DNA of 64,000 nucleotides from Nymphaea colorata (Eukaryota > Streptophyta > Magnoliopsida > Nymphaeales > Nymphaeaceae): assembly GCF_008831285.2 (NCBI RefSeq), contig NC_045144.1:20103716-20167715 (forward strand). The letters run 5' to 3'. Under the pieces are notes generated by a model that worked only from the letters and a program-made list of their open reading frames with translations, made no database searches and was not told the DNA's origin. The translations under genes were made by a program, and so were the position numbers. This document shows positions 2,551-48,586 of this stretch, piece after piece (position 1 is the stretch's first letter; each line of letters opens with the position of its first letter).

Positions 2551-5500
2551 ATGAAGCGAGTTTCCCTTTCAATCCTCTTTCTCGCCCTTCTCTTGCTATC
2601 CTCTGTGGCTGTTGGGCGTCAATTGGTTGAAGATTCCCGTATGTTTTCTTTTTCCCATCTAGTCGTTCTTCCTTTAGAAGTTGTTTGGCATTTATTTGGG
2701 GAATATTCATGGTGAGAGCAGGGGATCATGTCACTGTGTTGCTCTTGATGTCAAATAGGCAACTGCACGAAAGAGTTGCTTGATGAAACGCCAACGGGAT
2801 TGACCGATCTGCGGTTGTCTAATTATATTAGTTGTTTTCGATAGTTGAGTGGTCTCATCTTTACTGCCTCCCCATATCTCTCTTTCGAACACTAAAAGCT
2901 CACACACTTTAACATGCTCAAAGACATATTATGAACAACATGCTCAACCAATTTCTCAACCAATTGCAGTTGCAGTGTCTTTCTCAACCAATTGCAGTTG
3001 CTATTTACAATGAAGCGAGTTTCCCTTTTAATCCTCTTTCTTGCCCTTCTCTTGCTGTCCTCTATGGCTTTTGCACCTATGCTGATCTCTAGTCCTCCTT
3101 TGCTTCTTTTTCCTTTCAAAAATTTTAGCCCAGAGTAGATCATGTCACCCTCTTGCAAGGCAGTTGTGGGCAATTGCCTCCTAACTGAAAACTTTACATT
3201 TTATGCCTATTGCCTCTATCGTGTTGGTGACACTCTTGATGTCAAACACGCAGCTCACTCCATGTTGCTTGATATATAACACAGAGAATGATTTGCATTA
3301 ATTTGTGGTTGTTTCCACTCCTCTTCGATTCCCTGAGCCATATAGTTGGTTGCTACCATGACGCGAGCTTCCTTTCCGTCTTGTTTGTAGCCCTTCTCTT
3401 ACTTGTGCAGGTGGCTTTTGCAAGTGAAATGGCTGAAAATCAGAGTACGTTTCGTCCTACCCCAGACTTCCTTATCCTTTTCCCAGAAACCAAACGTAGA
3501 TCGATTGAGTGACCCCCTTATAGGAGATGCTCTTCATGTCAAACAGGTTCTTTGAATCCCTGTAAGTTCAATCTGACTTTTGTGGTGCGATGTTATTATG
3601 TGGTGGTTGTCATGTTTATAATGAACACCGCCTGCGCACTCATGTATGTCGCTGTGTTAAGATCATGCCCACTGTTGTATGCTTATTGTAAGCCCCGGGA
3701 ACCTCCTTGTTTCCTCTCTGTGAATTTAAACCCTCGGTAGAAAACCAGAGAATGGGAGGTTCGCCATCCGCCTCCCTTCGTTCCAATCGCTTGCTGCTTC
3801 TGGGAACTGAGGCATCAGATTTTTGTCTGCTGATTTGTCGATGCACAATGGTCGCCGGTTACCGAAAACGACCACTGCAGTGCTCGCAGAGAAAGAGGAG
3901 AAACGTCAAAAAGAAAGGAAAGATTAAGCGACGAATATTTTTCCTCTTTTTTTTTTTTCGTTGGACCTCATAAAGTCCCCTGTTTTTTAAACCTCGACCC
4001 CTCTGTCTCTACCGACGAGCAGCAGACGCCCGACGGACTGGAACCCAGTCGTCTTCCTCGTGCCAGAAGCTGAGACGTCCTCATGCTGGTAGCAGAGAGG
4101 CGACTTGGGTAAAGGAAGAAGACGGCGTTTGAAGCCCTGCAGACGAACTCCTGTCGTTCCTCTGGGTCTGCCGACATAAAAGGAGCGAGAGTAGAGAAGG
4201 AGGCGACTTCCTCCTGTCCCTCCTCTGGGTCTGCCGGGACAGAAAGAGCGAGAGCAGATAAGGACAGGAAGGCGGCTGGAAGCGTCGGTCGGCCGGTAGA
4301 AGCGGCAGTAGGAAACCCTAGCGCAGAACCTCGAGCGAGGAGAGAAAAGCTCTCCCGAGGAGAGAGAAAATGGGGCGCAAAAATGAAGTTTTCACGGGTC
4401 GAAATCTATTTATACTGAATATTTGAAAATTACAAATTTAGTCCATCAATTTTGCATAATTTTTAAAAATGCTGTCATATTTTGTAAATATATTGTCGTG
4501 ACGTTTTTGCTGAAAACTTTTCAAAAAGAGGCTTTCGAATGTTAATTTCAGCAAAACCGAGAATTTTATACAAAATTGCGTGGTGATACCCTCAGATTTA
4601 TTATAAATTGCAGAAAGTGGGTTCCACGAAAACCTTTTGCAATTTCTGCAGAAAACCAAGGTTTTATGTACAATTACGTACTGGTACCTTTAGGCTTATT
4701 GACTTGCCGAAAGAAGGTTCTGAAAATATATTTGAAAAGCAAAGGGAAATTCAAGTTCTAAGTTTAAGTTTAAATTTGAGATTTATGTGCATGCTTTATA
4801 TTATTATTACGGATCTCCTTATATGATATCCTCATATTGTTCTCCTTTTATTATTTTTTACAATTAATGACTTCAAGAGTAGGAGCCTCAAAACTGGGCA
4901 AGACCGAAAGACTAAATGGTTAACATATATGTATGTTTATGCAATTTTATTATAAAGACTAAATGGTTAACATATATGTATGTTTATGCAATTTTATTAT
5001 TTAGTGTGTGCATAACTCAATGACGATACAAATCTTGTGTTTGTGAAGCTAACTAAAATCTTACTTGGATATGAATACTATGTTGAAACACACTTATATT
5101 GTATTTGAATTTGGATCCTCTTTCTTTGTTTAAATATATATTGATTCTATTGTTGATATCATTGTGGTTGGATCCACATTGGAATGATATGAATTTTACT
5201 TAAAGATCCATATTTATATTCATTGAGATCATGACATATTCATATCTTAATTGGTTTGTACATTGTTAAAATCCATATCCTACTTATATTCAAAGATACA
5301 CTATTATGCATACCTTGTGGATAATTCATCGTCAGTTTGGTTTCATGGTGATTTTAGTTTTGACCAAAATTTTGTTTTATATATTTGTTTGGCTGTTGAA
5401 TTTGGATCTCACTGTAAACGTTGCAATTTTTTTTGGAGCATGATTCGATTTGACTCGGTTACATCTTTTGGTCAAAATCAAGATCTTGTTTATATTAAAT

Positions 5501-8500: not shown

Positions 8501-9573
8501 TGGCCAAGTGGAAGATGTTGGATAACAGCCTTGAACCTTATATTTACATCTTGTAATTGCAAGAGGGCTCACTTGCAGTTATGAGATTAAATATGAAAAC
8601 TAACCAAATTTCTCAAGTCATAACCATTGCTGAGCATCGAGAAACCCTAAGAGGCGGTCTATAAAAGCTCAGCTAATCTCATACTTAGGGTTGATCTTGG
8701 GAGATTACCCAAGCCGGCGCGCCTCGTAGAAACAAACCCGTGAATAACCTATGGTTTTGTTCCTTTTTTCTTTCACTTCTTCCAACACTTGGTGTGATGT
8801 TGCTGCTGCCTCTTCACGCACAAAGGAGACGCCGCTGGTGAGGAGACTCTAAGCCTATCACAGATAGGATAACATTCCGCTGCATTTTTCCCAACAATTA
8901 TATATATTCTGCTGCATTTTTCCCAACAATTATATATGTGACTAAGATTGGAACTTTAAGGATTGAGCTTTGAAGATCATTCTAAGTGCTCTTCATTGGG
9001 AAAGGTGAAAACATTTCCTAAAATAACTTTTCTACACTATCCTGAAAGAACTTTTTAGGAATGAAAGGATGGTTGTTCCTATTTACTTTTAGTAATAACA
9101 GTCTCACAGCCTGCAATTTTCGCAATGCTTTCTAGCCGTTCTTAAAAGTATATTTTTTTATTTTGACATAAGTTGGGTCTGAACACAAATCTCTTAGGTA
9201 TATGTATAACTGGTGCATGTGCCTTGGATTAGATATTCTCTAGAACTAATTAAATTTACAGCAATGACCAAAAGTACTGCAATCTAATCCCTTTTTAATA
9301 TTTCTTTTTCAGTTGTTTTACTCAATATATATGACCTTTGAATTTATATATGTGGGCTGTCACTTGTGACATCCAAAAACCACATGTTACTTGGCCGAAT
9401 GCAATGTGCTTTCCCTAATTATCATTAATATAGATGCAGATAAGTACAAAGGCTTTTGCAGTCTCTGCATTCGTCATGGCGTGTGCTGCGCAGACTATTG
9501 CTGCCCCACTAAATGCTGCTCGAAGGAGGAGTACGATGAGTTCCTGAAAGGGACGAGTGTCCCTCAGAACTGA
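2551..9573 (+). CDS. CRP1: secreted cysteine-rich peptide, two exons
   Basis: Exon 1 is 2551-2638 (88 nt) and exon 2 is 9440-9573, giving 73 residues. Residues 1-22 form a signal peptide (MKRVSL followed by a Leu-rich core), predicted to be cut after VAVG. A short variable spacer follows. The mature part has eight cysteines spaced C-x2-C-x5-CC-x3-CC-x3-CC, followed by an EEY motif and a VPQN C-terminus. The donor is C|GTATGT, phase 1. The acceptor TGCAG is chosen because CRP2 and CRP3 share it; a TAG acceptor 6 nt upstream would also keep frame. Exon phases and lengths match CRP2 exactly. The 6.8-kb intron is unusual: it holds two decayed first exons (3010, 3358), a 0.6-kb duplicated segment and a Copia LTR, so joining of these two exons is inferred. 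The product is probably apoplastic. The family is not recognised; a signalling or defence role is only a guess. Confidence 0.62.
3010..3075 (+). pseudogene. Broken CRP first exon (lacks 3' end and splice donor)
   Basis: This starts like CRP1 and CRP2 (MKRVSL, then the same Leu-rich core) and matches the CRP2 signal exon nearly base for base up to GCTTTTGCA. It then jumps to the sequence that in CRP2 lies just after the splice donor (CTGATCTCTAGTCCTCC). About 30 bp containing the end of the exon and the GTATGT donor are therefore missing. The flanks on both sides match CRP2, so this copy occupies the position equivalent to the CRP2 exon 1. It cannot be spliced as its relatives are. Confidence 0.7.
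3358..3444 (+). pseudogene. Broken CRP first exon, CRP3-like, 1-nt frameshift
   Basis: An ATG at 3358 opens an exon-like block that aligns with CRP3 exon 1 (ATGACGCGAGCTTCC against ATGAAGCAAGCTTCC) and ends at CAGA|GTACGT. It is 87 nt long instead of 88. One base is missing near position 3374, which throws the Leu-rich signal core out of frame and gives an early TAG in the ATG frame. The downstream residues (FAS...MAENQ) are readable only in the other frame. It is a dead copy of the CRP3 subtype lying next to CRP1-type copies. Confidence 0.65.
3540..4137. repeat. 0.6-kb segment nearly identical to 24880-25473
   Basis: The segment runs from AGGTTCTTTGAATCC to GACGGCGTTTGAA and matches 24880-25473 almost base for base. 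Only a few substitutions are seen, plus one extra T in a T-run and a 7-bp repeat (GTAGGCTG) near 25420. It lies in the CRP1 intron here and in the CRP2 intron there. A 68-residue minus-strand reading frame is identical in both copies, but this follows from the DNA identity and is not evidence of coding. In CRP2 the segment abuts the exon-2 region directly. Here 5.2 kb of other sequence intervenes. Confidence 0.8.
4138..8515. other. AT-rich, probably transposon-derived intron DNA
   Basis: This is the part of the CRP1 intron absent from CRP2. It starts with GC-richer purine blocks (4140-4370) and is then strongly AT-rich with repeated GGATCCAA/GATCTG phrases like those at 300-900 and 18180-18800. 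No intact frame is present. Near 7950-8300 broken phrases vaguely resemble the end of a Copia polyprotein, and GGCCAAGTGGAAG just before 8516 is a plausible polypurine tract. That would make this the wreck of a Copia element whose 3' LTR is at 8516-8896. No 5' LTR or primer-binding site was found. Confidence 0.4.
6232..6622 (+). repeat. Three tandem copies of a ~128-bp unit
   Basis: Each unit starts with TCCAATAAATNTTATNATGTTTG (third copy slightly changed) and runs through GATCATNTTGTAATATTTG, GATCATTCTAGAGAACTATT and TTGATTTGCTTCTCTTTC. Units begin near 6234, 6367 and 6495. Divergence between units is modest. The repeat is noncoding and sits in the CRP1 intron. Confidence 0.75.
8516..8896 (+). 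mobile_element. Copia-type LTR (3' or solo)
   Basis: This 381-bp block begins TGTTGG and ends CCAACA, a perfect 6-bp terminal inverted repeat typical of Copia LTRs. It contains a TATA box (CTATAAAAGCTC, about 8660) and a purine-rich GGCCAAGTGGAAG just before it that could be a polypurine tract. The last 20 bp plus flank (CTGCATTTTTCCCAACAATTA) are repeated immediately downstream. A truncated relative of the same LTR is at 24650-24867 in the CRP2 intron. No matching 5' LTR was found, so it is either a solo LTR or the 3' end of a decayed element. Confidence 0.65.
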
Positions 9574-10008
9574 GGAGGCTTCCTGGTTCGCCGGTGTTGA
9601 CGCATGTTGATGATAATGGTAGCAGCGAAGGTGCTTGTCAATAATAAAGTAAGCGTGCAAGCTTATTGTCCGCTAGCAATCGAGCATGCATGCAGGGTAT
9701 GTGTGTCCTGGTTCTTGTTGATTTTACAAGAACCTTATGTGTACGCTTTATGTCGCGTGGAATGAAATAAATTAGTTAAGCTCTGCCTAATCACTACACT
9801 ACAGAAAGAAGCATGTTTTTTGCAACATCCAAGATCCTGCCATGCAAAGCCAAAAATCCGTTGCTGCAAGTTTGTAGCATAATTACTTCAAATTCTTACT
9901 TGATCGTAAGATTAAAAACCATTAATTACTGTTGTTTCGGCGGCAGATGAAAAACTTTAGCTACTGTTTTTACCTTTTAGCAACAGTTATTCTGCCTGTG
10001 TGAGTACC

Positions 10009-10011
<3 letters not shown>

Positions 10012-10086
<75 letters not shown>
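10012..10086. repeat. (TA)n microsatellite
   Basis: About 37 TA units. The duplicate position near 26124-26150 has only a short (TG)n(TA)n run, so the array grew or shrank after duplication. Confidence 0.95.
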
Positions 10087-10089
<3 letters not shown>

Positions 10090-10343
10090 GGTAAAAACCA
10101 AACCCTTTAATTTGTTATTAAAAAATTTAAATAAAATATAAACATCCTAATATATATATATATATAAACTATTTTGATCATAACAAAGCTGTTTTATGAA
10201 ATATGTTGATTTTTTATTATATGCTATGAGAGACGTTTATTTTTTTCTTTTTATAAAAACACTATTAAAATCTAAAAAATGATCAGCTGAATATGAACTT
10301 TCAGAAAGAAAGAGAGATTTCACAAAAAAGATATTGTGATCAG

Positions 10344-10345
<2 letters not shown>

Positions 10346-10434
<89 letters not shown>
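10346..10434. repeat. Compound (TA)n(GA)n microsatellite
   Basis: About 21 TA units run directly into about 23 GA units. The duplicate site (26405-26430) has only the GA part and is much shorter. Confidence 0.95.
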
Positions 10435-10439
<5 letters not shown>

Positions 10440-11499
10440 TTCCCCAAAAAAATTGGGAACACAAAAAGAAAAAAGAATTCACAAACCAGAGAGAGAGTTT
10501 TTACAAAAGTACCACCTTAATGATGTAAAACGGCCGTCAACTTTGAGAAAACTAAATGACTAGTTTGACAAATAATTAATTTAAGAATAGTGGAGTAAAT
10601 ATATAATTTTAATTTGAACGAAAATTCACAAAGCAAGTTAGGATCCCTGTTGATCTTCCGCCCACTGAAGTTAGCCATGAATGGCCTTCACAATATGAGG
10701 TGGGCATGTTTTTGAAACTAGAATTGTGTAATCAAACAAATATTTGATTTCAAAATCTTCGACTCATTCTTAAATCAAAATTCTGAAATTACCATTTTGT
10801 TCTAACCGTGGAAATTGCGATTTTCAGAATTCCATAATTTTTTCATCTCTGCTTGAGGCACATGTTGTCACCATAGTTTTAATTCATCACTTTTTAAATT
10901 TTAATTAAAACTGAAATTTTTAAATTCTAATTTGAGGTGAAATTTTGTCTTTAAAATTTTATTTATACAGTCAAAATTTGCGACAGTCAGACGATCCTGA
11001 TTGTATAATTCTTTCATTATAATAAAGGAAAGAGTTGTCGATTGAAGCATAGACCGGCGTTTTTAGCCCTCCCTCCCTTTTAGTTTTTAACGTTGGTGAG
11101 GGCCCATAAATTTATTAAATTTCATTAGAGCATTGCCTGGACATCCGGTCGGCTTGGCCGAGTTAAATTAAAAATATATATATTTAATATAATATATATA
11201 TATATATAATTAATCATAATAAAATATTATAATTATATATAAAAAATAATAAAATATATATTAAAAATTTTATCTGATTGAACTGGTTTCATTGCGCCCA
11301 GCCAGGCTGGCCCGATAACGTATGGGACTGGCCCGGTGGCCCGGTGCCCTTCATTTGGGGGCTGACTACCGAGTACCTGCCAGTAGCCCGGCCATGTGCC
11401 TAAGCTTAATTTCACAGCAAACATCTTTTAGCCTAATATGGATAGCCCAATATGGATGATGTGTAACAAACTAACGGTCATCAACAAGCCAACTTTTCC

Positions 11500-12659
11500 T
11501 CTTCTCTTAGAAAATTCATTGTGATTATGTGAAGAGTAGAGAAGACAGTAAATGTAGGTTAATTAGCGCTTTTTTTTTCATTTGAGTGGTTCATGTTTTC
11601 ACCACTCTTAAATAGAGGCAACTACTTCCTCGTATGTCTATCACCTTCATGGTTTATAGAGCTTGCGTTGGGACCTATTACGGTATAAAAGATGTGTGCG
11701 TGAATCTCAATCGTGACAGCAACCGTATAATTTGGATCTCAGACCCCTTTAAAATAGATGGCCTTGCCGCCCAACTCCAACATCCTGACTTCTTTTTGTG
11801 TTTAAACCTTTTCTTCTTTCTCTTTTGGATAGCAAGACCCTGTTCTAATGGTTGGGACACTTCGTTTCTTCTTATGCCTACGTGATAGGCCTCCTCTCAT
11901 CTGCTATTTTTCAATCACGTCAGTTTTTCTTGTTTTCCAAATTTATGCCAACCAACTTACACTGTTAATGACTATATCATTGCTCCTGATCGTTCTAACC
12001 CATAAAAAGGCGCTAGATCTCTTTCGTCTTCATCCAAATTAAATTAATTATTTACTTTAGCCTTAGTATATTAATTAATTAGTTATTCATGACATTGAAG
12101 TTATGCTTTTTATATTGCTGTATAAATCAATTTTCGTGAAACAAATAAGTTAATTTGGATTGATTAATTTATATTATAAAAAATAGTTTAAACCCTTTCA
12201 ACCTCAAAAAATTTTATCTAGCTTTGTGTTTGGAACCAAGTACAAATCCAATCTCATATTTTGGAATCTTTTGAATCTCAAAAACTTTCGCCTGATGTGA
12301 AAGAATCGAGGAGATCCATATATATCCAACAAAAGGAATGATAAAACTTTGATACGTTTTCAATTTTTCATATATTTTTCAAGAATAAATATAAATACAC
12401 ATTAATTAAGTTTTGGACGAATAACAAATCCACACTCATGTTTTGAGTGTTATTTCACTTTATACAATTTAGATCCTTGATTTTGAAGATATCAATTTAT
12501 TAATTTATTTATGCACATATATATTCATTAATTAATCCTAGATTAATGCCTACCACTAATGCCAATCCTACGATCCGAGTGTTCTATGAATCTATCTAAA
12601 AAATAAATATTTACTTCAAAGATCGTAGAATATTCATAAATAACTTGGTATATTGTTCT
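11500..12659. repeat. Flanking duplication block (partners 28385-29506 and 41620-42310)
   Basis: Shared landmarks are AAAATTCATTGTGATT, CAAATAAGTTAATTTGGATT, the TTTCGCCTG...GAGGAGATCCATATATATCC block, and AAGTTTTGGACGAATAACAA. The piece at 11635-12095 is missing from the 28-kb copy, and part of it is present at 41620-41820. The block leads straight into the CACTA-type left end at 12660. No gene is seen; the small open frames are not conserved in the other copies. Confidence 0.65.
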
Positions 12660-12765
12660 CAACGACAAAAACTAAGGATTCAATGACAACTGAAAAACAT
12701 CTGCAAAAACATTGCTATGTGCCAGTAAATGTTTTACTGAAGTTCGAAACGGTTGACAGTAGGCT
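12660..12765 (+). mobile_element. Left-end fragment of CACTA-like element
   Basis: It begins right after TTGTTCT with CAACGACAAAAACTAAGG. It aligns with the left ends at 19638 and 29507, including CTGAAAAAC and GCTATGTG. After about 105 bp it gives way to a GC-rich GGCCCGG tract, so most of the element is lost. The right flank of the insertion locus reappears near 12905. Confidence 0.5.
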
Positions 12766-12899
12766 TGGGCGTGCGGGCCGGGTCGCGGCGGGTACCCTGT
12801 ACCCAGCCCGGAATGGGCCCGGGTCCAGGCCGCAATTTGCTAACGTCGGGCTTTCGCCCGTTGTGAATGGCCCGGCCCGACATTACAATGTTCACCTCA

Positions 12900-13500
12900 A
12901 TCATTGTCGCAGATTCATGAAACAGAATAGTATATTTTTAATGGGGCCATTTGGCAATTCAAATCCAAATCAAATCAGATTGCTAGGTTCACATATGAAT
13001 CCAAATCTTATAGTGCCGACTGCCGGCTGCCGGCTGCAAAGAGAGAATGAGGCCTGAAAGAGAGAGGAGAAAAAGACAGATGCAAAACAAGAGAGAGAGA
13101 GAGATATCACCACTGACCAGGACCTCATGGTTAATGAAATATGGATTTAAGATCAGCTATCAACATCCAAATCTACTGAAGAGGTCACAATTCACATCTA
13201 TTAATGCTCCCCATTTTTTCCATTAATGTGCATACCCTTTTTTTCTTTTGTCAAAAGGTATGGAGCCTAAGCTCTCTGGAGCTTTTCACGAGATCGTATA
13301 CAAATAGTGTCTCGTTAAAGAAGGGACATATACAAGTGGAGAGCAGAGATTCGGCGGTGGTGGTCGCAGTTGATTATTGCAACTTTTTTAGTTGTCCAGT
13401 CCATTCATCTATACGAAATGGGGATTTCTACCTACGTAATGGAGATGACATATTCTACCTCACGGATGAGATGATGTACATAGTCCCCTGCCTGCATTTT
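12900..13500 (+). repeat. Orphan CRP promoter-side module, decayed
   Basis: It contains GCCATTTGGCAATTC (about 12949), ATATGGATTTAAGATC (about 13140), TCACAATTCACATCT (about 13185), a CACGAGATCGTATAC-like block (about 13287) and GATGATGTACATAGTCC (about 13470). The last four are found in the same order at 1948-2400 before CRP1. No TATAAATAG box or first exon follows, so this looks like the remnant of a lost CRP gene copy. Confidence 0.5.
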
Positions 13501-14068
13501 AAATAAGAAGTGGAAGAATGGTCGCCTTCCCCTTCGCTGCTGGTCGCGCTCCCTTTTGCAGCCGGTGGCTTGCCGCTGGTATGCCGGCAAAAAGGGGGAA
13601 GGCGACCGGCATTTCCTTTCACTGATTCATACCTAATAGCAATATTTATATATATATATCTTGAACCTTCAAAATTTTGGAGTTACAACACATGTATAAT
13701 CATGAGCTTTTGTCTCACACACCTATATTGCTATACATGTTGTCACTTTTTAAACTTATTTTTCCTTTTCACTGGTTTTACCTAACAGATTAGGTGAATT
13801 TCATACCATTTTGGTGCCAATCAAAGTCCAAATATATAATAAAGTGTTCCAATATGTGAATATATAGGAATTAACATAAGCTGATTATGCTTTGAGACAG
13901 GATGGTTTTATTTTCTTTTTTGTATTGATAAAAAAGCATTGCAAAACGAGTTTTTCTTTGATAAACTAGTTTGCAGTGAATTTTCTACCCAGGCAAAAGA
14001 AACTTTAAAATAATGACTATGAAAAAATGAAAGAGAAAAGAGGGCATTGTCCATGGAAAAAGAGAATG

Positions 14069-14112
<44 letters not shown>

Positions 14113-16652
14113 AATGAATTAAATGTGTGTGATAGAGAGGAAGAGTGTAATCAATGGGAAGAGAATGGGACCCTGAATCAAATATCAGAAACAAAGAAAT
14201 TAATGTAGCCATGTTTTTTTCTCTTACTCACGAGTCTGAGTCGAGTTTGATCCAGTAAACCTAAGTGAATTCGAGCTCAAAATTTGATTAAAAATGGAAC
14301 CCAAACTCGACTTGTTTATGAAATGAATCCTTTCAAACTCGAGTTTGAGACAAACTTTACTGAGTTGAATCCGAGCCACTCGATGTATTGTTCAGGCCTA
14401 AGAGTGGAGCCCGATCTATACGTAATAAGCTTCTCTATTTTGTAAAGACATAATGTAATTTTGCATTTTCACCGTATTTAAGAATTGATACTCTTCATGT
14501 CACTGGGCAACGGGCCGGGCCACCGCCGGGTACCCGGTACCCGGCCCGTTACGGGCATGGGCCAGGGCCTTGAAATAATGATTTCAGGGCTGAGGTTAAC
14601 GGGCTCAGCCCGGCCCGATAATTAACGGGTCGGGCTCGGGCCTGCCGTTGTGATCCTCGGCGGCCCGAGAAGCCCGACATCATTTTTTTTTCAAAAAACT
14701 GAATGTTGAGGTAGCCGAGCGGCGCGCATTGCTCGAGGTCTGCCAGAACATGACCATTCCCCTATATCTCTCCACCCCTGTCATCTGCAAACCGCTACAA
14801 CTTAAGCGTCTGTTTCTATGGGTCGCCGGTGCCAAGCTCACTTGTCTCTCTCCCCATGTTCTTCAACTCCTTTAACTCGAAAAAGCCCAACCCGGCCCGT
14901 TAATGATCGGGCCGGGCCGAGCCTCGGGCATAAGTTGAAGCCCAAGGCCAGATATTAGGTGGGTCCGTCCGATGCCCAGCCTTAACGACAAGGAACATGC
15001 TCAGTGTTTTCCTCCATTTTCTCTAATTTTATGCTCAGTGTTTTTCCCCCATTTTCTCTAATTTTCTAAACTGATTCCTAATTACTTAACGTGGTGTCTT
15101 TGTACCTCCACTCACGTGGTGTCTTTGTACCTCCACTCAAAACGAAAAAAGAAATGGATCCAAAAATATGAAATTTGGATCCAAAATTTGAACAAAGATA
15201 AGAGCGCCTTAGTTTTGGATTTCCCAAAACGCCCTTTCCGTCTGTCTCATCGTCGGCACAGACCCTAAACCCATTTTTCCGAGGGAAAAAACTGGCCACC
15301 CCTTCACTTGGAAATACTTTTCCCACAAACGTATTATTTCCCCCCATTCATCGCTTTCTGGTAATTATTTCACCAGCACTGCATCAAAAACACATGTATC
15401 ATCACTCACTCACTGGGTGACAAGGGTATCTGTTTGATGCACTAAATTCCATTTCCCCCGACTCATCGCTTTCACGTTGATGCCAAAAGAATCGTGCCCA
15501 TGACGTGATTCATGTGACCTGCCAAAGTTTTCTGCAGTAGAAATAAAGAGATATATATATATATATATATACACTTGATTCTCATCCTATGCTACATGTG
15601 CAGCACATTTTGTCATGCACTTAGCCTTTGAGATCAATTCGCTACTCCATAGATTTAGATAGAGGTGTGCCATTCAGTATCAAACAGGAAGAACCGACAG
15701 CTGAAAACCTTCATTCTCTGTTAACCATACGTCCATTGAGCAGGCAGCAGTCGTAATTCAAGAGGGGAGGATCTGCTGGGGCTCCTCCTCCACCAACATC
15801 AAAGGAAATTAATGTTAATTTGGTATGAAAAATTAGCTAGCTAGCCAAACGTTAGCTTGACATCTTCAAGCGCTCAAAGAGGTTAAAAGTTAAATATATA
15901 AGGGTTCGTGCAATCGATGGGAAAGGGGCTGATAGGCGGTCAGTTTTTATTTTGAATTTTAGAGACGCCAACTTCTTGTGTTGCAAAAGATAAGTCACCA
16001 ATGCTCAAATTGAAGTATGGTCAAGGTAGTATCTCAAGGCACTAAAAGCAAACCTTGTACCTTAAAAAAGGAAAAGTATAGATAGAGGTTTTGGTCTTTT
16101 AGTTCACCCTAAAATGTATAAATACATATATCTAAGATGACCTATGCCTAGTAGATCTGACTTAAAGGCATGTTTACAGAATCGAGAACAAGTTGAACCA
16201 TGCATTGGTCACTCACATATGACAATGTATTGATGAAATTAAACCGTGTCAAACCCTGAGGAAGGTCTCTTCCTAAGTTGAATACGGTCAAGTTTAAAGA
16301 ATGGAAAAAAACAGTAAATTAAAAAAAAAATCCCTAAAAGTAAGAAAAGTAAAATAAACGAGAAACTAATAACACAAACATCAAAATAACCATGAACGTA
16401 GAGGTAACACATGCAAAAGGTCAAGCTGTAATGATGTGGATCAAGCACAATCAAAAACAAGGGAATCATTATATTGATAGATATCAAAATAGATTTAGTA
16501 ACATAAGAGATATGGGTGTTGGCTTGGATTTCTCTTTGTTTTTGTTTTTGTTCTCTCTCTCTCTCTTCAATGGTTTCTCAGTTTGGCAAAGGAGCTCAAG
16601 ACAAGAGATTATGACTGGTGTGTTACAAATGGCTACTTGTTTTCATTCATTC

Positions 16653-16699
<47 letters not shown>

Positions 16700-17784
16700 A
16701 TATATAAAGAGAGAGAAAGAGAGAGAGAGAGACGATGGCCTCCAATAGTAAAAAATATCGTTGGCCTTTCATCAAGTAAAAAGTGAATCCGGAACCCGTG
16801 AAACGTATTGAAACTCTTGGTGTGAGTCTGTGAGACAAGGTGTAAGACGTCCATGAAGTAACTAAAACAAGGGTGGGACTGTGCCGTTTGAGGTATCCGA
16901 GATGGTTGTTTGTCTCCATCCTCTGAGTTGTGCATCGTTCCAGCTATCGTATATCGTGTGTTGAGATCGATCCCTCTATTATAGATTGAACCAAAACCAC
17001 AACAAAAAGCTTACGTATTGATATGCTGGAATCAGAATGTTCTTGATTTAATTAATTTGATTCCAATGTACTCGGCATCCAATGCACCTCTATTTCCATT
17101 TTCTTCCGATTCATAAGCAATTATTTAAGTAGAAAAACCGCATAAGGTACACAAATCCGATCGTCCTTGTCGACAGATTCTAAAACGATATGAATTATTA
17201 AGAAACTAAGGATGGATTCTCCACGACTGAAAATCTAAAAGCTTTGTCCTGAAGAGCTTAAAAATTTGCTAATTATTTGTTTGTAGGGTTGCTTCGTGAT
17301 CTGTTTCAATAATTAGAGATGGAGATTACTGTAACGAGAAGACCATATAATTAAAAAGTAGACGTCCTTTGTTTGTTCCCGTACATAAGTGCATGATTTA
17401 ATTAATTTGGCCTGGGGTCCAATAGCCATTGAATTGGGTAAAACTTCAGTCATCCGATATTGTGGAAGTTATATCCATGTAAGCAACTCTATTATTTGTG
17501 GCGCTTCAAGGGAAGGAGAGAAAAATTGAAGAAGAAGAAGAAGAGAAAGAAGAAATCTAGAAGAGACGAGAGAAACCAAAGGCTTGAAAAGATTATTGGA
17601 GAAATGATGAGGTATTTATAGAGAAAGAAGACACAAGGGGATTGTGGTATTTTTTTTTTTAAATGAAGTTAACTATCACTTAGTTATTATTGACTTAAAA
17701 TAACTTAAAAACACAAAAAAGATCAAATTTGTCCAAAAAATATGTTGATATGAGGGTTGATAATGCCAGAGGCAGCTTGTCCAC
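13501..17784. other. Intergenic, no gene recognised
   Basis: It holds a short inverted repeat (GGTCGCCTTCCCC at about 13520 against GGGGAAGGCGACC at about 13593-13606), a (GA)n tract at 14073-14109, GGCCCGG-rich dispersed repeat at 14505-14690 and 14885-14980, two 2-copy tandem duplications (about 15000-15065 and 15090-15138), (AT)n at 15549-15570, (TA)n(GA)n at 16657-16732, and a GAA-rich stretch at 17510-17580. Frames up to 118 codons here overlap simple repeats and show no domain. Confidence 0.5.
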
Positions 17785-19165
17785 CCAAGGCTCGCCAGCC
17801 TAGGCCTGACCCACTGCAAGTCTTGAAGGCCTAGACAGGCTGAGCTGGCCAGCCACAGACCTATTCTGGCCTGTGATGGCTGGCTGCATGACTAGCTTGG
17901 TCATGCCAGATCGCGCCTGGGCAGTAACAGGTTAGAACCCACCAAGCCAGGCCAGGCCAGGCTGCGCCAAGGTGGCGCGTAAGCCTGGCTTGCCTGGGCC
18001 TAGATTGGCTAAACCAGACTTGGTTAGCGTGTTACTTGTGCACCCTACAAAGGGTATTTGTGGTATTTTTATGAAATGAAATGATATTTCGTGAAAACGG
18101 AGGGCATTTTGACATATGTTCATAAAACAAGGGTATTTTGAGAATCTTGAATAAAAAAATATTTCCATCTAAAAAATGATCATACCTCGATACTTGGACT
18201 TTGGAATGAAGTGTGACTTATATTTGGATTTGAAAATGGATCTAGCTCTCATATTTGAAGCTGAAGCTGGATCGAAAGCTTAGAATTGATCAAAGATAAT
18301 ATTTTTAGATTTGGATCTCGAATTTTGATCTAAAACTCATATTTGGTTTTGAATCTCAGATTTTGATCTCAATTAAGGTAAAAACATGGAATTCGATCTA
18401 AATTTGGATCTAGATCAAGAATTTGGAACCAATCAAGGATATGAATCTAAACTTTGGATCTTGGGTTCAGATCGGACCTGGATTGATATTAAGGCACAAA
18501 TTGAGATCAAATGAGTGCAAAATTGATATTTGAATTACGGTCTAGATCTAAAGTTCTGTTGTGGATCCAGTTTTCAAATTTGGATTTGGATATAGATCCA
18601 TTTTGTGTGTGGTTTGAATCTAGGGATCTATTGTGGATCTGGGGCTAGTATTTGAATCTAGCTTTGGTTTTAGGGCTCTGTTTTAGATCTAGGGCTGGGC
18701 ATTGGATCTAGATTTGGATCCTAGAATTTTTTCTAGGCTTTTGTATGAGTTCTTGAATTGGATCCCAGTTTGAATTATAGAATAAGTCTAAACTGAGATT
18801 GGACATTTTGTCCAAAGTCTAAAATTAGATACAAATAAGTCTCACATATGGTTCATAGTCAAATAAAAGAAAAAGTTGACCATAGTTAAGAGAAATTGAA
18901 GTGTTGGAAGCCAAAAATCCTTGAAGGTTGTCGTAAAGTTATCACAAAAATGTTGGGAAAATGCTAAATATAAAATTTTGAAAAATTTGGGATGATTACA
19001 ACTTAAAAATTCAAAAAAAAAAACAAAAATAACAAGAAATTTAAAAAAAAAACAAAAACAAAAATACAAAACAAAAGAAAGGAGCAGCTTCTGTGTTCCA
19101 TATCCAACCATCGCTGCTGGATCGCCTTTGCCAAGCAAGTCGCATGTCTGAATGCAGATAGAAGT
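17785..19165. repeat. Dispersed repeat, copy 2 (partner at 1-1190)
   Basis: This is the fuller copy of the GATCT-rich repeat at the window start, with the same order of blocks from the GGCC-rich leader to GAATGCAGATAGA. A/T-rich length differences and scattered substitutions separate the two, so the duplication is older than the CRP 3'-flank duplication. Confidence 0.6.
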
Positions 19166-19637
19166 CCACCGTCAAGGACTCTGGAAACAGAGAGGCGATC
19201 GTTAGTAAGAAGTGATTTGCGGGATCCAAGATTATCGGCCCATAGCCCTTAGTTAAAACTCTCCATACAAATTTGTTATTAAATACTTGGCTAGCCTATG
19301 AAGAAGACTCGGTAGAGAGTTATTCATTCTGATCTACGGGGCTTTCAGACGGAAGATCTCAAGTCGGCATATATATTTATGAATTAATTAATGCATATAT
19401 AATGAATATATTAATTTATTTATGCACATATATATTCATTAATTAATCCTAGAATACCGACTAGCACTAATGTCAATTATATAGACAATATATAAGTCTT
19501 TTAAAACTTAGGTTTAGTTAATTATTTCCTTTGTTTATAAATATGGGAGTAGGAATGGTCTGAGTGTTTTATGAACCTATCTGAAAAAATAAATCAAACA
19601 TTGTGGAATATTCATAAGGCACTTGTTATATTGTTCT

Positions 19638-20785
19638 TACTACAAAAGACTCAGGATTTACCGATGGCTAAAAAACGTACGTAACACATGGCTATGTGTC
19701 GCTAAATGTTTCAAACATGTGTCATGGCTAACACATGTAACACCGTTCGAGGTGGTCGACAAGACAATGAAGATAATGTGAGTGACAACTATCACTGACA
19801 TTCAAGTGCACATGTCGGTTTAGAATTAAAATTTTGCACCGATGTGTCATAGGTAAATAAAATTATTACTAACATATTTTGGGTGCCAGTGGAAGTTTTT
19901 ACCAACATATTTTGGGTGCCAGTAAAACTTTTTATCGACATATAGCTGGGCATTGGTAATATATTTATCCACGCATATTCATGTGCATTGCATATCAAAC
20001 ATATATAACTGCAGCAAAACTGAAAAAAAAACATGAAACAGAAAACGTAAAATGATTACCTTTAGTATCAAAACAACAAAAAAATAGAGAAGACATGAAT
20101 CAAATAAAATAAACAACGAAAAGATAGAGAAGACATGAACCAAATTGAAAAAATAAAAAGATAGACAAAATATGACCAAATAGAATAGAATAAACAAGAA
20201 GATAGAGAAGTAATGAACCAAATAGAATATTTCAACTACCTCACTAGCAGCAAATGCTCTTTTGTTCTTTGGCAGCACGGTCTCTGATACTTGGAGAAGA
20301 ATGCTGGAATGCAAAAGCACAAAAACATGAAGCAAAAACATAAAATCATTACCCTAAAACAATATCAATAACGGATAACCTAAAATCCTGTACAAATGGG
20401 AAAAAAACATAACATTAAGTTCAAGCAATCTACTTTTTTATCATGTAGACATCAAAAATTGATGAAAACACCTACAATTGCTCAAAAGCTTTGATAAATG
20501 TTGGTGGAAAGAAGAGGAAGGAGAAAGAAAAGAGGAAAGAAGAAAAAATAGAGAAGAAAGCTCAAACGGAGTAGAGTCGGGGAAGCTTTTACTGACACAA
20601 GAAAAGCATTGCTAAAGGTTCTTTTATCGACGTAAGCATGACCATGTGTCCGTCAAACTTATTTCTTCTGATCAATTGCGAAATGGATGTTGTTTTGAAC
20701 GTTAGTAAAAGTGAACATGTTTACCGATGAATTTGAGTTCAATGTTCATAAAAGCTCAACTTTAATCAGTCTTTTTTTTATAGTA
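19638..20785. mobile_element. CACTA-like non-autonomous element, copy 1
   Basis: The left end TACTACAAAAGACTCAGG and right end ...TTTTTTTATAGTA form imperfect terminal inverted repeats of CACTA type (first base mutated). Three-base target duplications TCT flank it (19635-19637, 20786-20788). The interior has many subterminal repeats of the pattern ACCGACAT...CACATGTCGGT and GTGTCGGTAAA in both orientations, typical of these elements. No transposase frame is present in about 1.15 kb. Confidence 0.7.
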
Positions 20786-21284
20786 TCTATAAGTCCGCCT
20801 CAATCTTTGTGGCATATTTATGAAATACTCATAGTATATTCTTGATTATGCCATTTGGCAATTCACAACAAGAATCCAACCCAAATCCGGTTGTGTGATT
20901 CACATTTGAATCCAAATGTTGAAGTGTAAACAAAATCTAAACTACATAGATACAGCTTTCAAAATATATAGACATTTGATATGAGATATTTAAAACTAAT
21001 TATGATCCAAATCTGAATCTGATAGGAGAAACTTAAATTGAATCTGCCTAACTAAATATCAATTTTTTTTTCTTGTCTGATTTTTTTTGAAAAGTTTCTG
21101 TCGGCAGATGCAGTACAACACGTGGCCGGATTCATGAACATCCACGACACAACACCCCCACCTGATTGATGCTACAGAATGACTTTGATGCTGATCGGCG
21201 ACGAGTGGACCATATACATCAACATCAGCTGCATTAGGTAATGAAGCTTGTGTCAAGCACTAGCAAAACTCTTTCACAATTCAC

Positions 21285-21334
<50 letters not shown>

Positions 21335-22245
21335 CAAGTAGATGTTGTACATACAACCATTTGAATTTGAATGAATGGCAGATCGCTAGATTGAGTTGCG
21401 TGCAGGAAGGCGACCTAGAAGACATTCTAGTAATTTTTAAAAAGGTTTGTCTTTGATAGTTTTTTACTGTTTTTTTTCTTTGATTTCCCATTTCTGTCTT
21501 TCCAAAAAGATGCGAATCGAGGTATCTTCGTGATAACTATACTAATCAACAAATTTTGGTGCACCAATACCGTGTGCTGAATATAACCAGGTCCGGGCCG
21601 TCCGGCAGATCCGGGCGTCTGCAATCAAACAAACACGTCCTCTTATCCCTTTTGTGGCCAGCTAACATCAACTGTTCTTCTCATTAGACAGAGAAGAAAG
21701 ACAAAGCGCCAGGGAAAAGGCCAATGATGGTGAAGGTCTTCTTTGTGGTAGAGAGCGAGAGACAGAGAGACCGCAGATGCCGGCTGCCGACTGCACAATC
21801 TTCCCTCAGCCATGTTTATAGCAATGATTTATAGCGATTTTAGGGGCAGATTTTTGACTTTTTGTTTTTATTTTTAATTTTTAGTTTTTTATCGAAGAGG
21901 AGATTAGAAATGGGTGGGTATTTGAGAACCTTTCCCACTCTGAAACTGCTACACTGCTCTTTTTTGTGAGAATAATCATATGTTGGTTATATTGGAAAAA
22001 ACATGAGTTCAAAATAGTGGGTGCCACATCTATACTACCCAGTTGTTTGTTCTGCTTTCAATTTGCCGTTGTCAAATTTATCTTTTCCTTTTGCAGCTCG
22101 TCAAATATACAGTACTTGATGTTGAATAGTAGTTTCTCACGAGGTCGTGCTTTTTTAGTTGTTTAGTCCAAGAAGCAAGCTTCCCTCATTCACTCTCTCT
22201 CACTTTCTAAAAAGGTAGATCTCTTACTGAGTCTCAGGTCACGCT
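20786..22245 (+). repeat. CRP promoter-side module, copy B
   Basis: This is collinear with copy A (1205-2470): GCCATTTGGCAATTCACA, AAAACTAATTATGATCCAAA, TTTCTGTCGGCAGATGCAGT, GGTGCACCAATACCGTG, GCGCCAGGGAAAAGGCCAATG and AGCGATTTTAGGGGCAGATT. It carries its own (TA)n array at 21287-21333. It ends at the CRP2 TATA box. The minus- and plus-strand frames across it are not gene-like. Confidence 0.6.
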
Positions 22246-22254
22246 TATAAATAG
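22246..22254 (+). promoter_or_regulatory. TATA box of CRP2
   Basis: TATAAATAG followed by ATGACG lies 90 bp upstream of the CRP2 ATG. The following leader (GAGGTTTCATTCTGCAGTGC) is shared with CRP1, so initiation probably occurs at the same place in both genes. Confidence 0.7.
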
Positions 22255-22335
22255 ATGACGGAGGAGGTTTCATTCTGCAGTGCACTCATCCAGTCTTCCT
22301 CCACCAGTTGCAGTTGCAGTTGCTATTTACAAACA

Positions 22336-23748
22336 ATGAAGCGAGTTTCCCTTTCAATCCTCTTTCTTGCCCTTCTCTTGCTGTCCTCTATGGCTTTTGC
22401 ACGTACACTACATGAGAATAAAAGTATGTTTCCCTGATCTCTAGTCCTCCTTTTCTTCCTTTTCCATTCAAAACCTTTAGCCCATCAAGAGTAGAACTTG
22501 TTACCCTGTTGCAGGCGCCGAGGCAGGTGTGGGCAATTGCCTCCCTACACGGACACTAAAAAATTCTTATTTTGTGTTAATATTTATAAGCAATTTTTCT
22601 CATTTACATATTTGTGCCCATAAAGCTTTTACATTTTATGTCTATTGCATCTTAGCTCGAATTTCGTGGCTTTGCCTCTACCGTGTTGGTGACACTCTTG
22701 ATGTCAAACACACACCTCACATCTGCACTCCATGTTGCTTGACGTATAGTACAGAGAGAATGATTTAGATTACTTTGAGGCTGTTTCCTATTGGTGTCTG
22801 ATATTTGGAGTCTCACCATTTGAAGATCAGAACAGCCTCTCCCAGCTTGCTCCTCTCTCTCTCTATCTCCTGCATGTTGCTTGATTTGGTTTTTTGCAGC
22901 TTTTTCTCTAATATTTGTTACATAACAAGGTTAGTAACATTGTATTGGAATTAAGGAGAGGTACAGCATAGGGCACTTTTATTTTAAGATTCAAACTTAG
23001 AGGGGCACTAGTAGTTTTTATATGTAAATAAAGCAAATTCAGTATTTAGATACACGTACAAGAGTTGGGTATTTAGATAGAAGTAGGTACGTTTTGGATC
23101 ACATCTAAAATCTAATGATTCTAAATTGGATGTAAATATAAACAGGTTTAAGGTCTACAACTTCTTAAACTTATCTTCGCGTGGTCTGTATTTATTGCAT
23201 TCTAACTGAAGTGTCACATCTACAATATCCTAAAATATTATCATCTGCTATCTTTGATATATGCAACCATCCTTTAAAATCTCGCATTTTCAGAATTGAA
23301 GGTGCACTGGTCATTTTTCAAGATCCAGCTTCGTAACTGTGGTCGAAAATTTCGTGGAAAGAAAAGCATCAAGAATAAGATGTGAATGTAATTTTGTAAT
23401 CCTTCATGTTCGAAAGCTACGAGCCATTGATTTTGATATATTTATTTATTTATGAAATTTGATCTACGTATCTGTCATTTATAGTTTTATCTATTATTAG
23501 AACATTAGTTAGCTTGGTGTTATTGTAATTTTTTGGTTGTTGATTTTACTTTTACAGAACTTACTTTCCCATCAATTAGGGCTTATCTCTTGTCGTAAAT
23601 GCTGGCCCATTTGCAATAGAGAAGGAAACCTCAATTAGGGTTTATCTCTTTGTCGTAAATGCCTGGCCCATCTGCAGTAGAGAAGGAAAACTTAAAAAAA
23701 AAAAAGTTTCATAAACATAGGCTTTGGGCGTGGGACCAATTATTGGCG

Positions 23749-23824
<76 letters not shown>

Positions 23825-24308
23825 CTAAGTTGAAAATATGAAAGACAGTGAGAGCTGGCAGGGGCTTTTGAGCCCCTTCAAAATTTCAAGAAAAGAAAAA
23901 TTCTTTTACATGTAATTTTTTATAAAATTTACTTGGCCTGTATAAAAGATTTTGAAAAATTATATTTTGGCTTTTGTTAAAATTTTTAAAGTTTAATTCG
24001 GTCCTCAAATTTTTTGGTTTCGCCCCTGCATATAAGTACATGAAATAATTTATATCAGGCATTACATAATATCATCTTAAACTAAGTTACCATAACAAAA
24101 TTTTTTAGATGCCAAACGCGTCACAACAACTCTCAGGCGCCCGTCATTCTTCAGCAAAACACCTTTTCCCACTGCAGCCGGCCAACTTACTTACCTTCGA
24201 AACTCATTCGCACTGTCATTATTCACATCCTTGTACTATCCTGCCTTCCCGTCGTGGGCGATGGTCACGGACTTAAATTATGATCAATTATTGGCTCTCT
24301 CTCTCTCT

Positions 24309-24363
<55 letters not shown>

Positions 24364-25696
24364 GTTAGATTTATATTTATATTTATATTTGTGGTAGTGT
24401 TCATTTAACATATAGGAAATTTGTCCAGCCAGCTAGCTAGTTTATTTATTTTCCTGCTAGGTTAATGTGATACGATATATGCAACCATAGGGATGATCAC
24501 TGGCAGATTCAGGCTAAATTAAGTTATATTATATTCACCATGACACGCTTCATTTGGAAAACGAGAAGAAGACTGCCGGTGTAGCAGATTTTATAGAGCG
24601 AAAGTTTCAGCGGGCACTTTGAGGCTTCAAGGCCAAAGTTTCAGTGGGTCCTATTGCAGTTATGAAATGAAAACTGCTGAAATCTCTCCCGGCGGGAAAC
24701 CTCTATAAAAACCCTGTTAATCTTATACTTAGGGTTGATCTTGAGAGATTACTCAAGCCGCTCTTCCTAAAAGCAAACCCGTTAATAACCTATGTAAGGT
24801 TTTATTCTTTCTTCTTCTCCTTCTTTTTAACACTAAACACGATACCCGCTGCATTTTCCCCAACATTAGTATGAGAACCAGGTTCTTTGAATCCTTGTTA
24901 GACTTTTGTGGTGCCTGTGATGTTATTATGTGGTGGTTGTGATGTTTATAATGAACACCGCCTGCGCACTCATGTATGTCGCTGTGTTAAGATCATGCCC
25001 ACTGTTGTATGCTTATTGTAAGCCCCGGGAACCTCCTTGTTTCCTCTCTGTGAATTTAAACCCTCGGTAGAAAACCAGAGAATGGGAGGTTCGCCATCCG
25101 CCTCCCTTCGTTCCAATCGCTTGCTGCTTCTGGGAACTGAGGCATCAGATTTTTGTCTGCTGATTTGTCGATGCACAATGGTCGCCGGTTACCGAAAACG
25201 ACCACTGCAGTGCTAGCAGAGAAAGAGGAGAAATGTCAAAAAGAAAGGAAAGATTAAGCGACGAATATTTTTCCTCTTTTTTTTTTTTTCGTTGGACCTC
25301 ATAAAGTCCCCTGTTTTTTAAACCTCGACCCCTCTGTCTCTACCGACGAGCAGCAGACGCCCGACGGACTGGAACCCAGTCGTCTTCCTTGTGCCAGAAG
25401 CTGAGACGTCCTCATGCTGGTAGGCTGGTAGCAGAAGAGAGGCGACTTGGATAAAGAAAGAAGACGGCGTTTGAATGTTACTTGTGACATCTAAAACTGC
25501 ATGTTACTTGGCCCAATGCAATGTGCTTTCCCTAATTATCATTAATATGGATGCAGATAAGAAGGATTACAGAGGCCATTGCTTTACCTGCCTTCGTCAT
25601 GGCGTGTGCTGCAAAGACTTTTGTTGCACCAACCGATGCTGCTCGGCGGAGGAGTACGCTGAGTTACTGAAAGAGACGATTGTCCCTCAGAACTGA
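22336..25696 (+). CDS. CRP2: secreted cysteine-rich peptide, two exons
   Basis: Exon 1 is 22336-22423 (88 nt) and exon 2 is 25557-25696, giving 75 residues. The signal peptide is almost identical to CRP1 and ends at MAFA. A variable spacer (RTLHENK) follows, then the eight-cysteine core C-x2-C-x5-CC-x3-CC-x3-CC, EEY and the C-terminus VPQN. The donor AAAA|GTATGT and acceptor GATGCAG|AT are phase 1; the TAG acceptor seen in CRP1 is TGG here. The intron is 3.1 kb and contains a truncated Copia LTR and the 0.6-kb segment shared with CRP1. Relative to CRP1, exon 2 has a 6-nt insertion and 15 replacement changes but only one silent change. Both noncoding flanks are far more similar, and all cysteine codons are kept. 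AATAATAAAG near 25760 is a likely polyadenylation signal. The protein is probably secreted; its molecular function is unknown. Confidence 0.72.
23752..23822. repeat. (CT)n ... (TA)n microsatellites
   Basis: About 14 CT units, a short unique spacer and about 16 TA units lie in the CRP2 intron. A second CT/TA pair is at 24295-24362. Confidence 0.9.
24650..24867 (+). mobile_element. Truncated Copia LTR
   Basis: It aligns with the 3' two-thirds of the LTR at 8516-8896. Landmarks are TTGCAGTTATGA, a TATA box (CTCTATAAAAACCC), CTTATACTTAGGGTTGATCTT, GTTAATAACCTATG and the end GCATTTTCCCCAACA. The 5' TGTTGG end is missing. It lies just upstream of the 0.6-kb duplicated segment in the CRP2 intron. 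Confidence 0.6.
24880..25473. repeat. 0.6-kb segment nearly identical to 3540-4137
   Basis: This is the partner copy, in the same orientation. It is immediately followed by TGTTACTTGTGACATC, the sequence that precedes exon 2 in both CRP genes. The 3' breakpoint of the shared segment (after GGCGTTTGAA) therefore coincides with the point where CRP1 carries 5.2 kb of extra DNA. Confidence 0.8.
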
Positions 25697-26117
25697 GGCT
25701 TCCTGATTCGCCGGTGTTGACGCATGTTGATGATAATGGTAGCAGCGAAGGTGCTTGTCAATAATAAAGTAAGCGTGCATGCTTACAATCGAGCATGCAT
25801 GCAGGGTATGTGTGTCCTGGTTCTTGTTGATTTTGCAAGAACCTTATCTGTACGCTTTATGTCGCGTGGAATGAAATAAATTAGTTAAGCTCTGCCAAAT
25901 CACTACACTACAGAAAGAAGCATGTTTTTTGCAACATCCAAGATCCTGCCATGCAAAGCCAAAAATCCGTTGCTGCAAGTTTGTAGCATAATTACTTCAA
26001 ATTCTTACTTGATCGTAAGATTAAAAACCATTAATTACTGTTGTTTCGGCGGCAGATGAAAAACTTTAGCTACTGTTTTTACCTTTTAGCAACAGTTATT
26101 CTGCGTGTGTGAATATC

Positions 26118-48187: not shown

Positions 48188-48394
48188 ATGCCAACTATGA
48201 ACGACCACAGGTTTAACATGGTGATGGTTGGTTTCCTGTTATTCTTCAGCGTGCTCTTTGTGGCAGTGATGTCGTTCGCGCTCGATTTCCATCCGGCCGA
48301 AGCCAGATGGACCATCTGGTCTGCCTCAATTTCCATGTACCTCAGCGTCCTTGCAGTTGCCGCTGTCTTCTATCTTTGCCCCACCTTTGTTTAG
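48188..48394 (+). CDS. TM2: small two-span membrane protein, tail interrupted by TAG codons
   Basis: 68 residues from ATG at 48188 to TAG at 48392. Spans are at about 11-32 and 42-64, with a loop containing DFHPAEAR. The start is chosen because the frame upstream is simple-repeat DNA and Lys-rich. The reading frame continues past the TAG for 82 further codons to a TAA at 48638, interrupted by only one more TAG (48470). The extension is Gln/Pro-rich and built from 13-codon repeats, like the Gln-rich tails of TM1 and TM3. Either the gene recently lost its tail or it is a pseudogene. Stop-codon readthrough is possible but unproven. The family is unrecognised. Confidence 0.45.
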   Translation: MPTMNDHRFNMVMVGFLLFFSVLFVAVMSFALDFHPAEARWTIWSASISMYLSVLAVAAVFYLCPTFV

Positions 48395-48430
48395 CTGCAG
48401 CTTCTACGGCAAGAACAACAAGCCCAGAGG

Positions 48431-48586
48431 CAGCAAGAACAACCGCAACCTAATCAAGAAGCCCAGAGGTAGCAAGAACAACCGCAACCTAATCAAGAAG
48501 CCCAGAGGCAGCAAGAACAACCGCAACCTAATCAAGAAGCCCAGAGGCAGCAAGAACAACCGCAACCTGATCAAGAACGCCAGCAT
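48431..48586 (+). repeat. Four tandem 39-bp units in TM2 tail
   Basis: Each unit is 13 codons in the TM2 frame, reading QQEQPQPNQEAQR in the consensus. The second unit begins TAG instead of CAG. The fourth has GAT for AAT and diverges at its end. The unit length, a multiple of three, and the family-wide Gln-rich tails suggest the array arose while it was being translated. Confidence 0.85.

What the first reader, a model, noticed from the sequence alone, without database searches (positions are those of the whole stretch)
9440..25696. Mature-peptide exon of CRP1 and CRP2 diverges far faster than its own flanks
Seen directly: over 43 aligned codons of exon 2, CRP1 (9440-9573) and CRP2 (25557-25696) differ in 16 codons, 15 replacement and 1 silent (a Cys TGC/TGT), with about 23 substitutions plus a 6-nt insertion (about 18% of sites). 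The roughly 400 bp after the stop codon carry only about five substitutions. In exon 1 the signal-peptide codons are nearly identical (two silent changes, one replacement) while the spacer after the cleavage site has diverged. All eight cysteines and the EEY and VPQN motifs are kept. Established knowledge: a conserved signal, conserved cysteines and hypervariable loops in recent duplicates are typical of peptides under diversifying selection, such as reproductive recognition or defence peptides. Which of these applies here is inference.
Basis: partly seen in the sequence, partly recalled or inferred. Interest (0 to 1): 0.88.

Follow-up and report, generated by a model that had tools for sequence, protein, structure and literature searches.

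The report
Water-lily peptides with swapped cores
Two neighbouring plant genes for small secreted peptides belong to a large clustered family, probably in a water lily, whose ends stay constant while the middle changes by natural selection and by exchange between gene copies; the family appears to have grown out of cell-wall glycine-rich proteins.

Summary
In detail: exon 2 of CRP1 and CRP2 differs at 23 of 134 sites (15 replacement codons, 1 silent, a 6-nt indel), against 5 of 388 sites in the 400 bp after the stop. The yardstick is poor: that tract is unusually young. Other flanking and intron stretches differ mostly by 8-17%; a repeat in the introns differs by 1.7%. Pairwise dN/dS is 2.1 but not significant.

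The own genome (408 Mb, probably Nymphaea colorata) shows a family on one contig: 33 of 35 two-exon models built, 26 distinct precursors, CRP1-3 included. Signal exon, splice sites and tail recur; cores are Gly-rich, Pro-rich, or 6-, 8- or 12-Cys. One 8-Cys gene is a mosaic broken inside exon 2 (p 5e-5). Site models put about 30% of 8-Cys codons at omega about 7-12; 0 of 400 mosaic null simulations reach the observed statistic.

A gene on another contig (C2) with the same two-exon plan and tail scores 41.7 bits with Pfam GRP, cut-off 30: the family probably derives from class II glycine-rich proteins. Function (recognition or defence) is inferred; no expression data.

The parts
2551..2638 (+). 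CRP1 exon 1 (signal peptide and spacer, phase 1, donor GTATGT)
   Evidence: TATATA at -82. Pairing with exon 2 over a 6.8-kb intron is inferred
9440..9573 (+). CRP1 exon 2, 8-Cys core and tail, with stop
22336..22423 (+). CRP2 exon 1
   Evidence: TATAAA at -90
25557..25696 (+). CRP2 exon 2, 8-Cys core and tail, with stop
33551..33638 (-).
   Evidence: TATAAA at -78
32365..32576 (-). CRP3 exon 2, 12-Cys core and tail, with stop
   Evidence: same amino acids in a copy at C7:21554090
3010..3087 (+). relic signal exon inside the CRP1 intron, splice donor missing
3363..3443 (+). relic signal exon inside the CRP1 intron, frame broken
9574..9973 (+). young 3' tract, nearly identical to the one after CRP2
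   Evidence: 5/388; also close in g72 and g86, about 12% away from g66
25697..26080 (+). the matching young 3' tract of CRP2
3541..4133 (+). dispersed repeat in the CRP1 intron, nearly identical to 24876-25475 in the CRP2 intron
   Evidence: 10/584; 36 genome matches

Best explanation
CRP1, CRP2 and CRP3 are members of a family of small secreted peptides, clustered on one contig, with constant ends and a changing core. Each gene has a signal exon, a phase-1 intron and one exon that carries a variable core and a recurring tail (CC-x-x-EEY/F...VP). Two processes make the observed pattern. (1) Exchange between paralogues (gene conversion or unequal crossing-over), with a breakpoint shown inside exon 2 in one gene, moves cores and makes some flanks alike, such as the 400 bp after the stop of CRP1 and CRP2. 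(2) Diversifying selection changes codons around and between the cysteines while cysteines and tail are kept. The family probably descends from class II glycine-rich proteins. Shown: the family, the two-exon models as sequence, one mosaic, the selected site class in four genes. Inferred: splicing, secretion, the recombination mechanism, the origin, and the role (most likely an extracellular peptide set that meets variable partners: microbes or, less likely, mates).
For: Family: 33 of 35 two-exon models, 26 distinct precursors (the n097 model is doubtful). Signal mean identity 71% over 253 pairs (two length variants left out), tail 52% over 300 pairs, core 39% over aligned residues. Exchange: g72 (C7:20072611) matches g66 before and CRP1 after a breakpoint near codon 28 of exon 2, permutation p 5e-5; CRP2 as mosaic p 0.013. 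12-Cys genes: in codons that code the same residue, silent divergence exceeds that of the intron end at p<0.05 in 5 of the 11 pairs shown (of 55 examined), e.g. b499-b732 10/25 against 13/160. Selection, 8-Cys: M2a against M1a p 2.5e-4, 12 codons with posterior above 0.8: none a Cys, 8 between the first and last Cys, 2 before, 2 in the tail; 0 of 400 mosaic null simulations reach the observed 19.38. 12-Cys: M2a p 0.005. Origin: spliced C2 gene 41.7 bits with PF07172; tail profile from C2/C11 modules scores CRP2 24.8 and CRP1 15.7 bits, best of the shuffles 5.8. TATA boxes 78-90 nt upstream of all three ATGs.
Against: No transcript or protein evidence. CRP1 needs a 6.8-kb intron with two relic signal exons. 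The selection test has four sequences and 44-50 codons; no type A pair has dN above dS at p<0.05 (6 of 6). The 12-Cys tests were not bootstrapped, and recombination inflates them. The island pattern is not universal: of 6 pairs among four 12-Cys genes, 2 show exon 2 above both sides, 3 have an equally diverged 3' flank, and b499-b563 is the reverse (0.09 against intron 0.15). CRP1 as mosaic p 0.097. CRP3 and most 12-Cys genes are not recognised by the tail profile.
Confidence: 0.7

Rival explanations
1. Exchange alone: exon 2 is an older sequence brought in by conversion between young flanks, and replacement changes piled up without positive selection.
For: Mosaic g72; silent sites of exon 2 are also far more diverged than the intron end in several 12-Cys pairs; mean omega about 1.
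Against: In CRP1-CRP2 silent divergence in like codons is 1/16, no higher than the intron (6/80), while replacement divergence is 20.5/106.5; the site test survives a mosaic null.
Confidence: 0.15
2. Relaxed constraint: one or both copies are untranscribed and drifting.
For: Two relic signal exons and a long intron in CRP1; mean omega near 1.
Against: Open frames, splice sites and TATA boxes kept. In simulations that place 23 random changes on CRP1, all Cys survive in 3-4% of runs, at most one silent change occurs in 1-3%, and both in 0.05% or less.
Confidence: 0.1
3. Reproductive recognition peptides (pollen-stigma or pollen-tube signals) rather than defence.
For: Constant signal and varied Cys-rich core are also known from such peptides (established knowledge, e.g. 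LURE and SCR, recalled).
Against: No expression data; class II glycine-rich proteins, the probable source, are reported as cell-wall proteins, WAK1 partners and immune triggers (PMC5852109, PMC8096328, PMC7576778, passages).
Confidence: 0.25
4. Assembly artefact: some copies are duplicated or collapsed contig ends.
For: Exon 2 is identical in five copies (b732, b763, b834, b857, b880) and in four (b499, b505, b511, b517).
Against: CRP1, CRP2, g66 and g72 differ from each other throughout, so the main pattern does not rest on identical copies.
Confidence: 0.05

Closest known systems
Class II glycine-rich proteins (Pfam GRP, PF07172)
   Same: Signal peptide and C-terminal Cys-rich domain; the C2 gene with the same plan and tail scores 41.7 bits; four of six Gly-rich C7 members score 23-28 bits, below the cut-off of 30.
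   Different: CRP1-3 have no glycine-rich repeat and no PF07172 match. The tail spacing C-x3-C-x3-CC of the C2 gene differs from the six-Cys stretch of the dodder protein as printed in PMC7576778.
Plant cysteine-rich peptide families in tandem clusters (NCR, LURE, SCR; recalled)
   Same: Constant signal, spaced cysteines, varied loops, local clusters.
   Different: No Pfam match for CRP1-3 beyond chance; the recurring C-tail and the glycine-rich kin.
Venom peptide superfamilies with constant signal and varied mature part (recalled, only as an analogy)
   Same: Constant ends with changing core; two-process diversification.
   Different: Plant genes; weak Pfam matches to such a family (E 0.26-0.65, far below cut-off) are taken as chance.

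Membership tests
Class II glycine-rich protein | N-terminal signal peptide | tested here: met
   hydrophobic N-terminus in the 33 models; no signal-peptide predictor was run
Class II glycine-rich protein | Gly-rich repeats | tested here: not met
   absent in CRP1, CRP2, CRP3; present in six C7 members and in the C2 and C11 kin
Class II glycine-rich protein | C-terminal Cys-rich domain | tested here: met
   CRP2 24.8 and CRP1 15.7 bits with the C2/C11 module profile, shuffles at most 5.8; not met for CRP3 in that test
Class II glycine-rich protein | Match to PF07172 above its cut-off | tested here: not met
   no match for CRP1-3; met by the C2 gene
Peptides under diversifying selection | a class of codons with omega above 1 | tested here: met
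   8-Cys set; mean omega not above 1
Granulin-like 12-Cys fold for CRP3 | match to a granulin model | tested here: not met
Reproductive or defence peptide | expression in the relevant tissue | not testable with these tools
   no transcriptome held

The most novel reading that the evidence does not exclude
A cell-wall glycine-rich protein lineage has turned into a combinatorial peptide arsenal in a water lily: a constant signal and a constant tail hold an exchangeable core, which ranges from glycine-rich repeats to 6-, 8- and 12-cysteine domains, and is renewed by conversion with breakpoints inside the mature exon and by selection on loops. The tail would be the shared recognition or anchoring part.
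Probability: 0.35. Interest if true: 0.8.

Novelty: new variant of a known kind. Interest (0 to 1): 0.6.

Why it matters
If right, it gives a traceable route by which a cysteine-rich peptide family arises: intermediate glycine-rich, proline-rich and cysteine-rich cores still stand side by side with the same signal exon and tail. It would also warn that low divergence next to an exon can be a conversion tract rather than a neutral yardstick. The plant is probably an early-branching angiosperm, where such families are little described in what I searched.

Tried and rejected
Rejected: the plain reading that exon 2 far outruns its flanks (most other stretches differ by 8-17%) and the plain 15:1 count as proof of selection (NG86 not significant). 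Granulin or toxin-type membership: no Pfam match for CRP1-3 beyond one PepSY_2 match at E 0.17, PDB matches to short Cys-rich peptides at E 0.59 or worse, no PDB match for the tail profile, no NCBIfam match in three proteins. The raw PF07172 match ran through a stop and intron sequence; it was replaced by a spliced model. The repeat 3541-4133 was not used as a clock. Mosaic test of CRP1: p 0.097. Hexapeptide searches of papers for the tail listed no paper with two of the terms; papers holding only the motif could lie outside the ten shown. Searches for water-lily peptide families listed none that describes this one; only listings and, for one transcriptome paper, passages were seen.

Rows dropped: one search shows 11 of 55 12-Cys pairs (flank divergence under 0.16; s7.9 left out); one search used 9 of 12 distinct 12-Cys sequences (s7.9, b554 and b573 left out as near-duplicate or frame-altered) and 4 of 5 8-Cys genes (g86 equals g72); one search used gap-free codons, one breakpoint and one fitted tree; one search used 9 of 10 modules; one search counted 25 precursors (n097 left out); six of the Gly-rich members were scanned with Pfam over, four matched.
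Full report
What is in the window. A third gene, CRP3, lies on the minus strand (exons 33638-33551 and 32576-32365) with a 12-Cys core. All three have a TATA box 78-90 nt before the ATG, a phase-1 junction and an acceptor that ends in GATGCAG. The CRP1 intron (6.8 kb) holds two relic signal exons near 3010 and 3363.

The contrast re-measured. Exon 2: 23/134. The 400 bp after the stop: 5/388. Distal 3' windows: 135/1259, single windows from 5% to 17%. Upstream 149/1029 and 24/196, promoter 19/143, one intron block 21/121, intron end 6/79. So the 3' tract is the odd one out (p 2.5e-11), and exon 2 stands only modestly above the rest (p 0.03 and 0.06).

The family. The window lies in a 408-Mb genome of 783 contigs, on contig C7. 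Published N. colorata has 409 Mb in 804 scaffolds (PMC7015852, passages), so this plant is probable, not proven. Queries with CRP1 exon 2 gave 5 of 5 matches on C7, with CRP3 exon 2 23 of 23, with the signal exon 32 of 32; queries with 6-Cys members gave 13 of 14 and 10 of 11, the two others being weak and broken. The tool scores only the best candidates, so counts are lower bounds. Sites cluster at 19.82-19.88, 20.03-20.25 and 21.47-21.88 Mb, with singles at 6.9 and 7.9 Mb. I built 33 two-exon models from 35 tried; no exon 2 was found for n250, and the 7.9-Mb copy has a stop in exon 1; the n097 model is doubtful. They give 26 distinct precursors.

Constant ends, changing core. Core types: Gly-rich with GPGWG repeats (six genes), Pro-rich or short with 4-6 Cys, 8-Cys (CRP1, CRP2, g66, g72, g86) and 12-Cys (CRP3 and others). 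Mean identity is 71% for the signal, 52% for the tail and 39% for aligned core residues; core length runs from 32 to 75 residues.

Exchange. In g72 the intron end and first part of exon 2 follow g66, the rest follows CRP1 (18 of 22 informative sites before the break, 51 of 58 after), permutation p 5e-5; the same break appears with CRP2 as second parent (p 5e-5), CRP2 itself gives p 0.013, CRP1 p 0.097. Among 12-Cys genes, silent divergence within like codons exceeds the intron end at p<0.05 in 5 of the 11 pairs listed (uncorrected), with b467-b536 the other way. The profile of b499-b732 is 0.09 in exon 1, intron and the first eight codons of exon 2, 0.28 in codons 9-70 and 0.14, 0.07, 0.15 after the stop; b563-b732 is similar; three pairs with b467 also have a diverged 3' flank; b499-b563 is reversed. 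This cannot be selection alone, because silent sites are raised too.

Selection. Type A pairs: dN/dS 2.11, 1.23, 2.25, 1.11, 1.14 and 0.66 in six distinct pairs, none significant; replacement divergence exceeds that of the intron end in 6 of 6 at p<0.05 and that of the 3' flank in 5 of 6. Type B pairs run from 0 to 1.94, one undefined. Mean omega 1.08 and 0.95. Site models: 8-Cys M2a against M1a p 2.5e-4 with 30% of codons at omega 7.6; refits on gap-free codons with three trees give omega 9.5-11.7 and p 2.7e-5 to 6.2e-5. Under a null simulated with two trees and a breakpoint, 0 of 400 runs reach 19.38; the 99% point is 11.3. 12-Cys: M2a p 0.005, M8 p 2e-9, nominal only.

Origin. Four of six Gly-rich members match PF07172 at 23-28 bits, below its cut-off of 30. 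A C2 gene has the signal MALRRLSLLVIFAAF..., exon 2 beginning DKKDA, GYGYGR repeats and the tail CYYRCGYRCCSAEEYAEFVQ; spliced by me it scores 41.7 bits, though exon 2 alone does not match. A query with that tail gave 40 matches: 19 on C2, 15 on C11, 6 on C7; a C11 frame of 325 codons repeats a 29-residue tail module. A profile of these modules finds CRP2 (24.8 bits), CRP1 (15.7) and most Gly- and Pro-rich members, against 5.8 for the best of 1040 shuffled sequences, but not CRP3; a profile-profile comparison gives 97.8% over 20 columns on hand-trimmed alignments. CRP1 and CRP2 thus lack the glycine-rich part that defines the class: they are derived kin, not members.

Role. Class II proteins have a signal peptide and a C-terminal Cys domain, and bind wall-associated kinases (PMC5852109, passages). 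A dodder class II protein in the cell wall, through a 21-residue Cys-rich stretch, is the ligand of the tomato receptor CuRe1 (PMC7576778 and PMC8096328, passages). By analogy I think an extracellular recognition or defence role most likely; this is inference.

Noticed in passing
C11:9857601-9858431 (L088): A 325-codon frame repeats a 29-residue Cys module with the family tail about ten times, like a poly-peptide precursor.
   Followed up: partly
C7:21573317-21573574 (b573): A 12-Cys relative whose first part of exon 2 reads as a shifted frame that later returns to frame, so that a stretch of the core is new.
   Followed up: no
window 32365-33638 and C7:21554090-21555127: CRP3 has a copy 1.4 Mb away with the same exon 2 protein and a one-residue change in length of exon 1.
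   Followed up: partly
window 3541-4133 and 24876-25475: A dispersed repeat lies in both introns, nearly identical in these two copies but at different relative places.
   Followed up: yes
window 48377-48610: Tandem 39-bp units, five copies in a Gln-rich frame.
   Followed up: no
window 49328-50007: Inverted repeat with arms of 327 nt, 86% complementary, 26 nt apart.
   Followed up: no
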